Below are positions 11,323-27,960 of a stretch of 47,419 bases of DNA, one piece after another; position 1 is the first letter of the stretch, and each line of letters opens with the position of its first letter. Source of the DNA: an uncultured Candidatus Saccharimonas sp. (lineage in GTDB: Bacteria > Patescibacteriota > Saccharimonadia > Saccharimonadales > AQU-01); assembly GCA_943358095.1 (NCBI GenBank), contig CALRGT010000006.1, positions 1 through 47,419 of the forward strand, given 5' to 3'. Both the position numbers and the translations under genes were made by a program. The notes beneath the pieces were generated by a model. It saw only the letters and a program-made list of their open reading frames with translations. It was not told where the DNA came from and did not search any database.

Positions 11323-11781
11323 ATGAGGCCCATTAATAATACTGGCTATCTTATGCAGAGATTATCTTTTCTGCTAGCTCGTCAGTCGGATCAAATACTA
11401 CAAGAACAATTAGGAATTGGTCATTCACAGTTTAAAATTTTGATGGTGTTAGGCTGGGATCCAAATATTGGACAAAAGTGTATCGCTGACAAGTTGGGCC
11501 AGACAGAGGCAGCTATAAGTCGCCAGATTAAGTTGCTTAAAGAGCTTGGCATGTTAACGAGCGAAATTAATCAGACTAATCGCCGAGAGCATATAACAGT
11601 GCTGACAGCAAAGGGGCAGAGGCTGACCGACAAGGCGTTGGAAGTGCTGAACAGTTATCATGCACCAATGTTTGAGCTATTAAGCGACAAACAGAATGAA
11701 CGATTGCACGAAAGTTTATCGATAATGCACGAGTACGTATGCAGAAACGAAAAACCGGGCATCAAACACGGACTTGAATAA
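11323..11781 (+). CDS. MarR-family transcriptional regulator
   Basis: Winged-helix: LGIGHSQFKILMVLGWDPNIGQKCIADKLGQTEAAISRQIKLLKELGMLTSEINQTNRREHITVLTAKGQ. Confidence 0.9.
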   Translation: MRPINNTGYLMQRLSFLLARQSDQILQEQLGIGHSQFKILMVLGWDPNIGQKCIADKLGQTEAAISRQIKLLKELGMLTSEINQTNRREHITVLTAKGQRLTDKALEVLNSYHAPMFELLSDKQNERLHESLSIMHEYVCRNEKPGIKHGLE

Positions 11782-11805
11782 AAATAATAGAGGATAGGGA
11801 TAAAA

Positions 11806-13095
11806 GTGGAAAAATTGAAGAGTAACCTTAATAGTCGTCTAGAAAAAAAGGCGCTACCAATAGTAATATTGACCATCTTTTTAGATGTGCTCGGTGTTGG
11901 TATATTGATGCCAGTATTGCCGCAATTAATATTTAGAATATTTGAGCCAGCTGGCTACAGCTACCACACATCTCTAATAATTTTGGGTTGGCTGACAGCT
12001 ATTTATCCATTGATGCAGTTTTTGTCTACGCCAATTCTTGGTCAGCTAAGTGACAGGTACGGCCGTAAGTCTATACTTGGATTCAGCCTTTTTGGTACAG
12101 CAATAGGCTACGCCTTGTTTGCCATAGGTATTATCACCAAGAACATTCCTCTGTTATTTTTCGCTCGAGCTATGGACGGTATAACTGGTGGAAACTTGAG
12201 TGTTGCAAGGGCTGTAATTGCCGATGTTAGTCCTCCTGAAAAGCGAACCAAGAACTTTGGTTTGATTGGGGCAGCATTTGGTTTTGGATTTGTTATGGGG
12301 CCATATATTGGAGCCCGATTAGCAGCTCCAAACGTTTCATTTTTTGGTCTACTTAATACGCCGCACTGGTTTGGTCCGGCAGTTCCATTTTGGTTCACTG
12401 CAATTCTGAGTGTTGTTAACACGCTGTTAGTCCTATTTATTTTGCCAGAAACTCACAAGCACATTAACACTAAGCTCAAAATGGCATGGACTAAGTCTAT
12501 AGACAACATTCGACACGCCGCTGCTCACCCATCCCTTAGGATAATTTTTGCATCTGAATTCTTGTTCTGGGGAGGCTTCACCTTCTTTACTACATTCTTC
12601 CAGATTCTGTTGATTCAAAAACTCGGCTTTAAGGTTAACAATGTTGGAGATTTCTTTGCTTATATCGGTGTATGTATTGCGTTAACGCAGGGATTATTAA
12701 CACCAAGACTCGCCAAGCGCTTTACCAACCAACAGATTCTTAGGGTTAGTATTCCAGGTTTAGGTTTTGCATTATTTCTACAGACATTGCCACACAACAC
12801 TACTCAGCTATTGATGGTCGCTCCATTCATTGCTCTATTTAATGGTCTAACTATGGCTAACATCTCGGCGCTAGTTAGTCTTTCTGCTGACAAGAAAATT
12901 CAGGGTGAAGTTCTTGGAATCGAAGCTAGCGTTCAAGCTTTGGCTCAAGCCATACCGGCAATTATTGCTGGCTACATTGCGGTACTTGGTGTTAGCGTGC
13001 CTGTAATAGTCGGCGGGTCAGTAGTTCTTGCTGGTGGGTTAGTATTTAACTTGTTCTACCGTTCGGCCAAAACTCCGGTTAGTGACGCTACGTAA
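11806..13095 (+). CDS. MFS drug:H+ antiporter (DHA1/TetA-like), GTG start
   Basis: LDVLGVGILMPVLPQLI; motif A GQLSDRYGRKSILG; 12-TM pattern; directly follows the MarR gene. Confidence 0.88.
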   Translation: MEKLKSNLNSRLEKKALPIVILTIFLDVLGVGILMPVLPQLIFRIFEPAGYSYHTSLIILGWLTAIYPLMQFLSTPILGQLSDRYGRKSILGFSLFGTAIGYALFAIGIITKNIPLLFFARAMDGITGGNLSVARAVIADVSPPEKRTKNFGLIGAAFGFGFVMGPYIGARLAAPNVSFFGLLNTPHWFGPAVPFWFTAILSVVNTLLVLFILPETHKHINTKLKMAWTKSIDNIRHAAAHPSLRIIFASEFLFWGGFTFFTTFFQILLIQKLGFKVNNVGDFFAYIGVCIALTQGLLTPRLAKRFTNQQILRVSIPGLGFALFLQTLPHNTTQLLMVAPFIALFNGLTMANISALVSLSADKKIQGEVLGIEASVQALAQAIPAIIAGYIAVLGVSVPVIVGGSVVLAGGLVFNLFYRSAKTPVSDAT

Positions 13096-13101
13096 AAGCT
13101 A

Positions 13102-13131
13102 TAGACATAAGCAGTGTTATTCTGGTATAAT
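13102..13131 (+). promoter_or_regulatory. Promoter of ssrA: TAGACA - 18 nt - TATAAT (extended TGG)
   Basis: -35-like TAGACA 13102-13107, -10 TATAAT 13126-13131 preceded by TGG; about 28 nt upstream of the mature tmRNA 5' end. Confidence 0.7.
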
Positions 13132-13159: not shown

Positions 13160-13550
13160 GGGGCTGAATTTAAGCTCGACGTCGGTCCTTCTCGGTTAGA
13201 TCAGCAGGTCGCTTGCTTAGCGTTATAGGGCAAAATTGTAATTGCAAACGCTTTTACTCGCGTACGAGATTTTGTAGCTAGTGCTTTTGCACCAAGCGCA
13301 ATGTTCGCCGGCGCAACAGCTTAAGTTACGACTTAATGCCGTGCCACGCAAGACGCCAAATATTGTAATGGTACGCCAAATCATTTGGCCGCTCATTATC
13401 GATAATCCGTAGATAGTGCTAAGACTTTCGGATTAAACGCTCTGACTTTTTGATTGTTTCTATGTCAGACGTATTCAAACAATCTACACCTGTAGGATAG
13501 ACTAACTGTTAGGCTAACGGACGCGGGGGCGGTACCCGCCAGCTCCTCCA
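13160..13550 (+). ncRNA. ssrA: tmRNA (transfer-messenger RNA), one-piece, encoded CCA; putative tag ANAFTRVRDFVASAFAPSAMFAGATA*
   Basis: 5' GGGGCTGA and 3' CAGCTCC-T-CCA form a 7-bp acceptor stem with G3-U70; GGACGCGGG...CCCGCCAGCTCC 3' end; GCAAAC resume site at 13244 and TAA at 13322-13324. Confidence 0.93.
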
Positions 13551-13559
13551 TAGTAAACA

Positions 13560-13585
13560 CCTCACTTTAAAAGAGTGGGGTTTTT
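13560..13585 (+). terminator. Intrinsic terminator of ssrA
   Basis: CCTCACT-ttaaaag-AGTGGGG stem-loop followed by TTTTT. Confidence 0.85.
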
Positions 13586-26055: not shown

Positions 26056-27960
26056 ATGACAGCACAAGAAATCCGAAAAGCTTATCTGGATAGCATGGTT
26101 AATAATGGCCATAGCATAATTCCTCGTGCACTTTTGGTGCCGCCAAACGATCCTACAACATTATTTACCGGCAGTGGAATGCAGCCACTAATACCATTTT
26201 TGCTTGGAGAAAAACATCAAGACGGTACAAGACTCGTTAATAGTCAGACTTGTTTGCGAGCTCAAGATATAGATGATGTCGGCGACAATCGTCATACGAC
26301 TTTTTTTGAAATGCTTGGAAACTGGAGTTTGGGTGATTATTTTAAGACCGAACAATTACGCTGGTTTTTTGAATTTTTGGTTGCCAAGGTTGGGTTAGAT
26401 CCGAATCGAATATATGTAACATGTTGCAGTGGATTCCCAGAATTTGGGGTACCTAAGGATTTAGAGTCGGCTCAACTATGGAGCGATCTATTTGACGAAC
26501 AAGGTGTTGATAATAAACAAGTTGAAATAGGCAGCGAAGAGAACGGTTATAAAGTTGGTGAACAGTCGGGTAGGATATTCTTTTATGACGAGAAGAATTG
26601 GTGGAGTCGTAATGGTGCACCTAAAGATGTCAAAGTTGGCGAGCCTTGCGGCCCAGACAGCGAAGTCTTCTATTTATTTGATCAGATTAAACATGACACC
26701 AGCTTTGGCGAACTATGTCATCCTAACTGCGACTGCGGTCGTTATATGGAAATCGGTAATTCAGTCTTTATGGAATATTTGCGAACAGACAAAGGATTCG
26801 AGAAATTACCGGCTCGTAATGTCGATTTCGGTGGTGGACTAGAAAGAATTGCTGCTGCCCAACTAGATAGTCCTGACGTTTTTAAAATCAGTATTTTGTT
26901 GCCAATAGTCGAATCGCTAGAGCAGATGAGTGGCAAAAAATACGAAAGTCACACTGCTAGTATGCGAGTTATCGCCGACCATCTGCGTGCTGCAACATTT
27001 TTGGCTGTGGATGGTATTGTTCCAAGCAATAAAGAGCAAGGTTATGTTATGCGTCGCTTAATGCGCCGAGCAATACGGTTTGCTTTCGAGCTTGGTGTCG
27101 AACAAGATCTTTGTAGCAAAATAGTACCGGTCATAACGGATTTATATAAAAATGATTATCCTGAAGTTTCTGCAAAATGCGACGAAGTTGTGGCAATCCT
27201 AACTAAGGAAGAAAAAATATTCCGTCAAACACTACGAAAAGGCCTGAAAGAGTTTGAAAACTTATTTGGTGAAGAAAATAAGAAAACTAAAGTAGAGAAT
27301 CACGGCGCAGCATTATTCCAGCTATATGACACTTATGGCTTTCCTTTAGAGCTAAGTATCGAAGAGGCCTATAAGCAGAATGTCGACTTAGACAAAGATT
27401 GGAAGCAACAATTTGACGCTAAAATGACAGAGCAACGCGAGCGCTCACAAACCGCAAGTAAAGGCACATTTAAGGGTGGACTTGGTGGTCAAACATTGCA
27501 GCACAAAAAATATCACACCGCCACGCATTTGATGTACCAGGCATTACGCCAGGTTTTGGGCGACCATGTCATCCAAAGAGGCAGTAACATTACTGAGGAG
27601 CGTCTAAGATTTGACTTTAGCCATGACGGTAAAGTTACGCCAGAACAGATAAAACAGGTCGAGGATATCGTAAATGAACAAATTTCCAAGGACCTAAAAA
27701 TAAGTTTTCAAGAATATCCTACTAAAGTCGCCAGAGAAGAAATGCACGCACTTGGACAGTTCGGTGACAGATACGGCGAAACAGTCAAAGTCTATAAAAT
27801 GATTGCAGAAGACGCGGACAAGCCGTTTAGTTTTGAGATCTGTGGCGGACCGCATGTTGACCACACTCACCAGTTAATTGAAGACGACAAAAAGTTTAAA
27901 ATATTAAAGGAAGAAGCTAGCTCAGCTGGTATTCGACGAATCAAAGCTGCTTTAGTCTAA
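26056..27960 (+). CDS. alaS: Alanyl-tRNA synthetase, short form ending at the editing domain
   Basis: Catalytic core FTGSGMQPLIPFLLG, CLRAQDIDDVGDNRHTTFFEMLGNWSLGDYF; editing motifs HTATHLMYQAL and CGGPHVDHT; ends EEASSAGIRRIKAALV. Confidence 0.96.
   Translation: MTAQEIRKAYLDSMVNNGHSIIPRALLVPPNDPTTLFTGSGMQPLIPFLLGEKHQDGTRLVNSQTCLRAQDIDDVGDNRHTTFFEMLGNWSLGDYFKTEQLRWFFEFLVAKVGLDPNRIYVTCCSGFPEFGVPKDLESAQLWSDLFDEQGVDNKQVEIGSEENGYKVGEQSGRIFFYDEKNWWSRNGAPKDVKVGEPCGPDSEVFYLFDQIKHDTSFGELCHPNCDCGRYMEIGNSVFMEYLRTDKGFEKLPARNVDFGGGLERIAAAQLDSPDVFKISILLPIVESLEQMSGKKYESHTASMRVIADHLRAATFLAVDGIVPSNKEQGYVMRRLMRRAIRFAFELGVEQDLCSKIVPVITDLYKNDYPEVSAKCDEVVAILTKEEKIFRQTLRKGLKEFENLFGEENKKTKVENHGAALFQLYDTYGFPLELSIEEAYKQNVDLDKDWKQQFDAKMTEQRERSQTASKGTFKGGLGGQTLQHKKYHTATHLMYQALRQVLGDHVIQRGSNITEERLRFDFSHDGKVTPEQIKQVEDIVNEQISKDLKISFQEYPTKVAREEMHALGQFGDRYGETVKVYKMIAEDADKPFSFEICGGPHVDHTHQLIEDDKKFKILKEEASSAGIRRIKAALV

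What the first reader, a model, noticed from the sequence alone, without database searches (positions are those of the whole stretch)
13523..13547. tmRNA with an almost completely substituted T-loop (GGCGGTA) and a U73 discriminator
The 3' end GGACGCGGG-GGCGGTA-CCCGCCAGCTCC-T-CCA has the same length as the E. coli tmRNA 3' end as I remember it (GGACGCGGG-UUCAACU-CCCGCCAGCUCC-A-CCA). Stems and acceptor are identical, but 6 of 7 T-loop bases differ (only C56 kept) and the near-universal A73 is T. The flanking stems are perfectly preserved, so a random sequencing error is unlikely. The T54-T55-C56 motif and A58 that define T-loops are lost. A73 and G3-U70 are the classic AlaRS identity elements; G3-U70 is kept and A73 is not.
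Basis: partly seen in the sequence, partly recalled or inferred. Interest (0 to 1): 0.82.

Follow-up and report, generated by a model that had tools for sequence, protein, structure and literature searches.

The report
Rewired tmRNA elbow in Saccharibacteria
The odd T-loop in this bacterium's ribosome-rescue RNA is real and normal for its lineage, and it comes with matching changes elsewhere in the molecule; the truly rare part is one base next to the amino-acid attachment end.

Summary
Confirmed: window 13160-13550 is a tmRNA gene with T-loop GGCGGTA (13528-13534) and U73 (13547). The sister genome carries both, so it is not a sequencing error.

The T-loop is not a one-off. GGCRGTN is the commonest T-loop in the window's order (all 52 G54/G58 loops among 186 parsed Patescibacteria tmRNAs lie there). 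It equals Rfam's consensus for alphaproteobacterial two-piece tmRNA (RF01849), and UU-to-GG replacement was published for a mitochondrial tmRNA in 2005.

The motif is replaced with compensation, not lost. Position 55 (U to G) covaries with D-loop position 18 (G to A): A18/G55 in 107, G18/U55 in 56 of 186. G19-C56 is kept. Positions 54:58 switch together (UA 119, GG 52, CA 7, AU 5; no single-change UG or GA). The 18/55 switch recurs in phage permuted tmRNAs and, without exception, in 78 tRNA-Cys genes, including this genome's own. The elbow probably folds normally, without m5U54 or pseudouridine-55.

U73 is rarer: 5 of 186 tmRNAs; in a scan of 84,980 species, convincing tmRNA hits only in Saccharibacteria/Patescibacteria, although this genome's tRNA-Ala keep A73. 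G3-U70 is intact, so alanylation is probably tolerated; this is untested.

The parts
13102..13131 (+). sigma-70-like promoter, TAGACA - 18 nt - TATAAT with TG before the -10
   Evidence: consensus scan, 11 of 12 matches; a consensus match only
13160..13550 (+). ssrA: one-piece tmRNA gene (mature RNA, 391 nt, CCA encoded)
   Evidence: Rfam RF00023, 57.1 bits, full length
13160..13166 (+). acceptor stem 5' strand GGGGCTG (G3 of the G3-U70 pair at 13162)
   Evidence: sequence; 7 pairs with 13540-13546
13173..13174 (+). D-loop A18-G19 (AG before CTCGAC; GG in tmRNAs with TTC T-loops)
   Evidence: covariation with T-loop position 55
13244..13324 (+). tag reading frame: resume codon GCA at 13244, tag ANAFTRVRDFVASAFAPSAMFAGATA, stop TAA 13322-13324
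   Evidence: translation
13523..13539 (+). T-arm: 5-bp stem GCGGG/CCCGC with loop GGCGGTA (13528-13534; G54 G55 C56 G57 G58 U59 A60)
   Evidence: sequence; same loop in sister genome and as Rfam RF01849 consensus
13547..13547 (+). discriminator U73 (A in nearly all tmRNAs)
13559..13581 (+). intrinsic terminator-like hairpin followed by T-run
   Evidence: scan
26056..27960 (+). alaS: alanyl-tRNA synthetase, 634 aa, the shorter PRK01584 form; the enzyme expected to charge this tmRNA
   Evidence: NCBIfam NF002436, 597 bits, above cut-off

Best explanation
This is a functional, vertically inherited one-piece tmRNA whose elbow uses an alternative set of tertiary contacts. Shown by comparison: across Patescibacteria the D-loop/T-loop contact exists in two states, G18 with U55 or A18 with G55, with G19-C56 kept; the intraloop pair 54:58 exists as U:A, G:G, C:A or A:U. 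The window has A18, G19, G54, G55, C56, G58. Inferred: A18:G55 replaces the G18:pseudouridine-55 contact, G54:G58 replaces the reverse-Hoogsteen U54:A58 pair, and the T-loop keeps its fold, so SmpB, EF-Tu and ribosome docking should be retained without the TrmA (m5U54) and TruB (pseudouridine-55) modifications, whose target bases are gone. Separately, the discriminator drifted from A73 to U73 in a few Saccharibacteria lineages; because G3-U70 and the rest of the acceptor stem are intact, AlaRS probably still charges it, perhaps less efficiently and with help from SmpB (inference).
For: tmRNA identity and unique copy; identical T-arm and U73 in sister genome. 186 parsed tRNA-like domains: 18:55 is A:G 107, G:U 56, other 23; 54:58 is UA 119, GG 52, CA 7, AU 5, other 3, with no UG or GA. 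By family majority, A:G 38 and G:U 20 against A:U 2 and G:G 1 (Fisher p 7e-13). On a tree of the tmRNA body without the loops, 54 and 58 switch together in 8 of 8 independent pairs (p 0.008), and 18/55 in about 4 of 5 with none opposed. Independent replicate 1: phage permuted tmRNAs with GGC or TGC loops nearly all have TAG(G)NT-CGAC D-loops, those with TTC have GG. Independent replicate 2: tRNA-Cys, 37 A18/G55 and 41 G18/U55, no exception in 78 genes, including this genome's tRNA-Cys. The curated alphaproteobacterial tmRNA consensus has the same T-loop with an AUAGGAUCGAC D-loop. Promoter and terminator; SmpB and AlaRS genes present.
Against: No structure or chemical probing: the geometry of A18:G55 and G54:G58 is inferred from covariation only. 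The tree-aware test for 18/55 in tmRNA alone is not significant (p 0.125, few supported pairs). About 12% of tmRNAs fit neither 18/55 state under my automatic parse; in two of the three G18/G55 exceptions (AGG) the assignment is ambiguous. Alanylation of a U73 tmRNA is untested, and A73 is a listed bacterial alanine determinant (PMC9976931).
Confidence: 0.8

Rival explanations
1. Decayed or relaxed tmRNA: the T-loop motif has simply been lost in a reduced genome and the elbow contact no longer matters.
For: Small genome; the discriminator has also changed; a few relatives have 6-nt T-loops or 6-bp T-stems, so the arm tolerates change.
Against: Changes are not random: positions 18/55 and 54/58 are tightly coupled, C56, purine 57 and the stems are kept, and the same loop is conserved across many families.
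Confidence: 0.07
2. The alphaproteobacterial-type 3' end was acquired horizontally, for example from a phage or integrative element that uses ssrA as attachment site.
For: Identical 7-base loop in alphaproteobacterial-type permuted tmRNAs, abundant in phage contigs.
Against: The intermediate TGCRA loop occurs widely in Patescibacteria; UA and GG states coexist inside single families (f2, f5, f28, f30, f35, f37); the D-loop, which an integration at the 3' end would not replace, changes too; the gene is one-piece.
Confidence: 0.04
3. Loss of the pseudouridine synthase TruB drove the loss of U55.
For: No TruB match in the window's genome or its sister; in the sample TruB is found in 27 of 35 genomes with UC at 55-56 but 20 of 42 with GC.
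Against: By family the difference is not significant (p 0.11); several G55 Saccharibacteria (G007, G078, G035) have TruB; almost all tRNAs of this genome keep U55; both genomes lacking the hit are only 90-91% complete.
Confidence: 0.08
4. Sequencing or assembly error.
For: None beyond rarity.
Against: Same T-arm and T73 in an independently assembled sister genome, and U73 in 15 genome records of Saccharibacteria/Patescibacteria.
Confidence: 0.01

Closest known systems
Alphaproteobacterial two-piece tmRNA (Rfam RF01849 alpha_tmRNA; RF04321 tmRNA_permuted)
   Same: T-loop consensus GGCgGUA and D-loop AUAGGAUCGAC, readable as A18-G19
   Different: Permuted gene giving a two-piece RNA; here the RNA is one-piece, with standard order and a different D-loop spacing; A73 there, U73 here
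Reclinomonas americana mitochondrial and Caulobacter tmRNA as described by Burks et al. 2005 (PMC1168896)
   Same: U341/U342 replaced by two guanines, or U342 by G
   Different: That text, as far as searched, names no D-loop partner and no Patescibacteria
Standard bacterial tmRNA (Rfam RF00023, E. coli type)
   Same: Acceptor, T-stem, G3-U70, CGAC motif, resume codon and tag frame, encoded CCA
   Different: UUCRA T-loop with GG in the D-loop and A73 there; GGCGGUA, AG and U73 here
tRNA-Cys of Saccharibacteria and other Patescibacteria
   Same: Same A18/G55 against G18/U55 switch, perfectly coupled
   Different: An ordinary tRNA; position 54 was fixed as U and 58 as A in my search pattern, so a 54:58 switch was not tested there

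Membership tests
tmRNA (RF00023) | Covariance-model match over the curated cut-off along the whole molecule | tested here: met
   57.1 bits against a cut-off of 47, model positions 1-374
tmRNA (RF00023) | Alanine-type acceptor stem with G3-U70 and CCA end | tested here: met
   GGGGCTG/CAGCTCC, G3 at 13162, U70 at 13544, CCA 13548-13550
tmRNA (RF00023) | Resume codon, tag frame and stop codon | tested here: met
   GCA 13244, 26-residue tag, TAA 13322-13324
tmRNA (RF00023) | TUC-type T-loop and A73 (usual, but not defining: RF01849 members also lack the TUC loop) | tested here: not met
   GGCGGTA and T73; membership rests on the other rows
tmRNA (RF00023) | SmpB partner in the genome | tested here: met
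   PF01668, E 1e-40 at G000:C1:82244-82663; 154-aa ORF
Alphaproteobacterial two-piece tmRNA (RF01849) | Circularly permuted gene | tested here: not met
   5' acceptor strand precedes the 3' strand in the standard order
Alphaproteobacterial two-piece tmRNA (RF01849) | T-loop GGCRGUA | tested here: met
Functional tmRNA | Alanylation and trans-translation | not testable with these tools
   needs a biochemical assay

The most novel reading that the evidence does not exclude
The tRNA elbow has a natural second code: A18 with G55 in place of G18 with pseudouridine-55, optionally with G54:G58 in place of U54:A58. It has evolved repeatedly in tmRNAs of Patescibacteria and of alphaproteobacterial/phage lineages and in tRNA-Cys, each RNA switching on its own within one genome; in a few Saccharibacteria the tmRNA has in addition left the A73 alanine rule that the same genome's tRNA-Ala obey.
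Probability: 0.6. Interest if true: 0.65.

Novelty: new variant of a known kind. Interest (0 to 1): 0.5.

Why it matters
The D-loop/T-loop elbow (G18-pseudouridine-55, G19-C56, U54-A58) is among the most conserved tertiary contacts in biology. Natural, repeated and coupled switches away from it in tmRNA and in tRNA-Cys give ready-made compensated mutants for asking what the conserved bases and their modifications are for. They may also explain why a standard gene finder misses these tmRNAs, which would help annotation of a very large bacterial radiation. U73 on a tmRNA beside A73 tRNA-Ala makes it directly testable how far AlaRS, SmpB and editing enzymes need A73.

Tried and rejected
Sequencing error: rejected (sister genome). 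T-loop as a one-genome oddity: rejected. A genome-wide change of all tRNAs: rejected; most tRNAs of this genome have UUCRA and both tRNA-Ala keep A73, and tmRNA and tRNA-Cys states differ within genomes (G032: tmRNA GGCAGTA with AG, tRNA-Cys TTC with GG; G219 the reverse). TruB loss as the driver: inconclusive, not significant by family. A relation between U73 and a distinct AlaRS: an AlaRS tree places three U73 genomes (G000, G007, G001) together and two (G078, G009) apart, with no obvious link; residue-level comparison was not pursued. The key older papers on the 54-58 pair and on mitochondrial tmRNA are not held, so prior description of the A18/G55 switch cannot be excluded. My D-loop parse counted AGG as G18; that affects two of three G18/G55 exceptions. 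A first parse of the genome's tRNAs gave garbled sequences and was redone.

Full report
What is there. Window 13160-13550 is a complete one-piece tmRNA gene: Rfam RF00023 matches it end to end at 57.1 bits, it is the only tmRNA over the cut-off in the 694-kb genome, it has a strong promoter-like site 13102-13131 and a terminator-like hairpin 13559-13581, and a tag frame ANAFTRVRDFVASAFAPSAMFAGATA with its stop at 13322-13324. The T-arm is GCGGG-GGCGGTA-CCCGC, the acceptor keeps G3-U70, and the discriminator is T. ARAGORN misses the gene.

Not an error. The other genome of the same family (G001) has the same T-arm and T73. A scan of 84,980 species for T73 tmRNA 3' ends gave 37 stretches. Fourteen show a full tmRNA with matching acceptor strands, and a fifteenth (L255) is cut at its contig edge; all are titled Saccharibacteria, Saccharimonas or Patescibacteria except one unnamed bacterium. 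The rest are not tmRNA-like, apart from one contig-edge hit (L256, Haloplasmataceae) that cannot be judged.

The T-loop is ordinary in the lineage. Among 86 order-level tmRNAs the loop is GGCAGTA (33), GGCGGTA (8) or a near variant in about 60%, otherwise mostly TGCRATN, CGCAATT or AGCATTA. In a phylum-wide pattern search TTC, TGC and TTT loops are common, and GGC loops occur only in the window's order. The same loop is the Rfam consensus of alphaproteobacterial two-piece tmRNA, and Burks et al. 2005 noted UU-to-GG in the Reclinomonas mitochondrial tmRNA and U342-to-G in Caulobacter (PMC1168896). At least 120 viral contigs carry GGC-type 3' ends, and the parsed ones are of permuted form.

It is compensated. 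In 186 parsed tRNA-like domains, D-loop position 18 and T-loop position 55 are A/G in 107 and G/U in 56; 54/58 is UA 119, GG 52, CA 7, AU 5, other 3, without a single UG or GA. By family majority the 18/55 association has p 7e-13, which still ignores relatedness between families. On a tree of the tmRNA body without these loops, 54/58 switch together in 8 of 8 independent pairs (p 0.008); 18/55 has only 5 supported pairs, about 4 in the same direction, none opposed (p 0.125). Two independent data sets repeat the 18/55 rule: phage permuted tmRNAs and tRNA-Cys, where 37 genes have A18/G55, 41 have G18/U55 and none of 78 breaks the rule, although the search pattern left both positions free. The window's own genome has such a tRNA-Cys, and a tRNA-Gly whose 19/56 pair reads U/A instead of G/C. 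I infer that the elbow contact and T-loop fold persist with other bases; the geometry is not shown.

Consequences. Without U54 and U55 this tmRNA cannot carry m5U54 or pseudouridine-55, which E. coli tmRNA has (PMC3968760). TruB loss is not a sufficient cause: there is no TruB hit in this genome or its sister, but several G55 relatives have it, and the family-level association is not significant.

The discriminator. U73 is in 5 of 186 parsed tmRNAs. On an AlaRS tree three of the five genomes (both of family f1 and one of f7) group together at 93/89 support and the other two lie elsewhere, one of them next to an A73 genome; the tmRNA tree needs five changes. So it arose at least twice. Both tRNA-Ala genes of this genome, and the one found in G007, keep A73. 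A73 is a listed bacterial alanine determinant beside G3-U70 (PMC9976931). The simplest reading is a tolerated change in an RNA that is charged with SmpB's help; nothing here shows a benefit. SmpB and a shorter AlaRS are present.

Verdict. A real tmRNA; the T-loop is already known in another bacterial class but, in the papers I could search, not reported for this phylum or tied to a D-loop partner; U73 is rare and unexplained. My literature access is limited to open papers, and the most relevant older papers were not held.

Noticed in passing
L644:1409-1482 (G000:C3, tRNA-Cys gca): tRNA-Cys with T-loop TGCGACT and D-loop GAGCAGTTA: A18/G55. The same coupled switch holds in all 78 tRNA-Cys genes found in the order and phylum.
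   Followed up: yes
L626:1501-1577 (G000:C3:9798-9871, tRNA-Gly gcc): T-loop TTAGAGT with D-loop AGTTGTTTA: the 19/56 elbow pair appears as U19-A56 instead of G19-C56.
   Followed up: no
G000 tRNA-Lys (ctt, ttt) and tRNA-Gly genes: Both tRNA-Lys genes have U73 (A73 is the listed bacterial lysine determinant), and all three tRNA-Gly genes have A73 (U73 is the listed bacterial glycine determinant).
   Followed up: no
L071, L076, L089, L105; L043, L081: Some Saccharibacteria tmRNAs appear to have a 6-bp T-stem around the GGCAG loop, and two have a 6-base T-loop (CTCATA, ATCAAA).
   Followed up: no
IMG/VR contigs L257-L336: At least 120 viral contigs carry tmRNA 3' ends with GGC-type T-loops; those parsed are of permuted, alphaproteobacterial type.
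   Followed up: partly
window 13160-13550 and L008, L031, L068, L101, L107, L110: ARAGORN finds none of these GGC-loop tmRNAs, so they are probably missed in routine annotation.
   Followed up: partly
G000 and G001 genomes: No TruB_N match over threshold in either genome of this family, each about 90% complete.
   Followed up: partly
L694:1468-1932: SmpB of this genome has Tyr where E. coli SmpB has a Trp in the phmmer alignment, probably Trp122, the residue that inserts into a tmRNA pocket (PMC8363625).
   Followed up: no
L135: This Patescibacteria locus shows two possible tmRNA 5' ends about 100 bases apart before one 3' end, perhaps a partial duplication.
   Followed up: no
window 11323-13095: A MarR-type regulator followed by an MFS transporter resembling Tet efflux pumps, below the curated Tet cut-offs, lies directly upstream of ssrA.
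   Followed up: no
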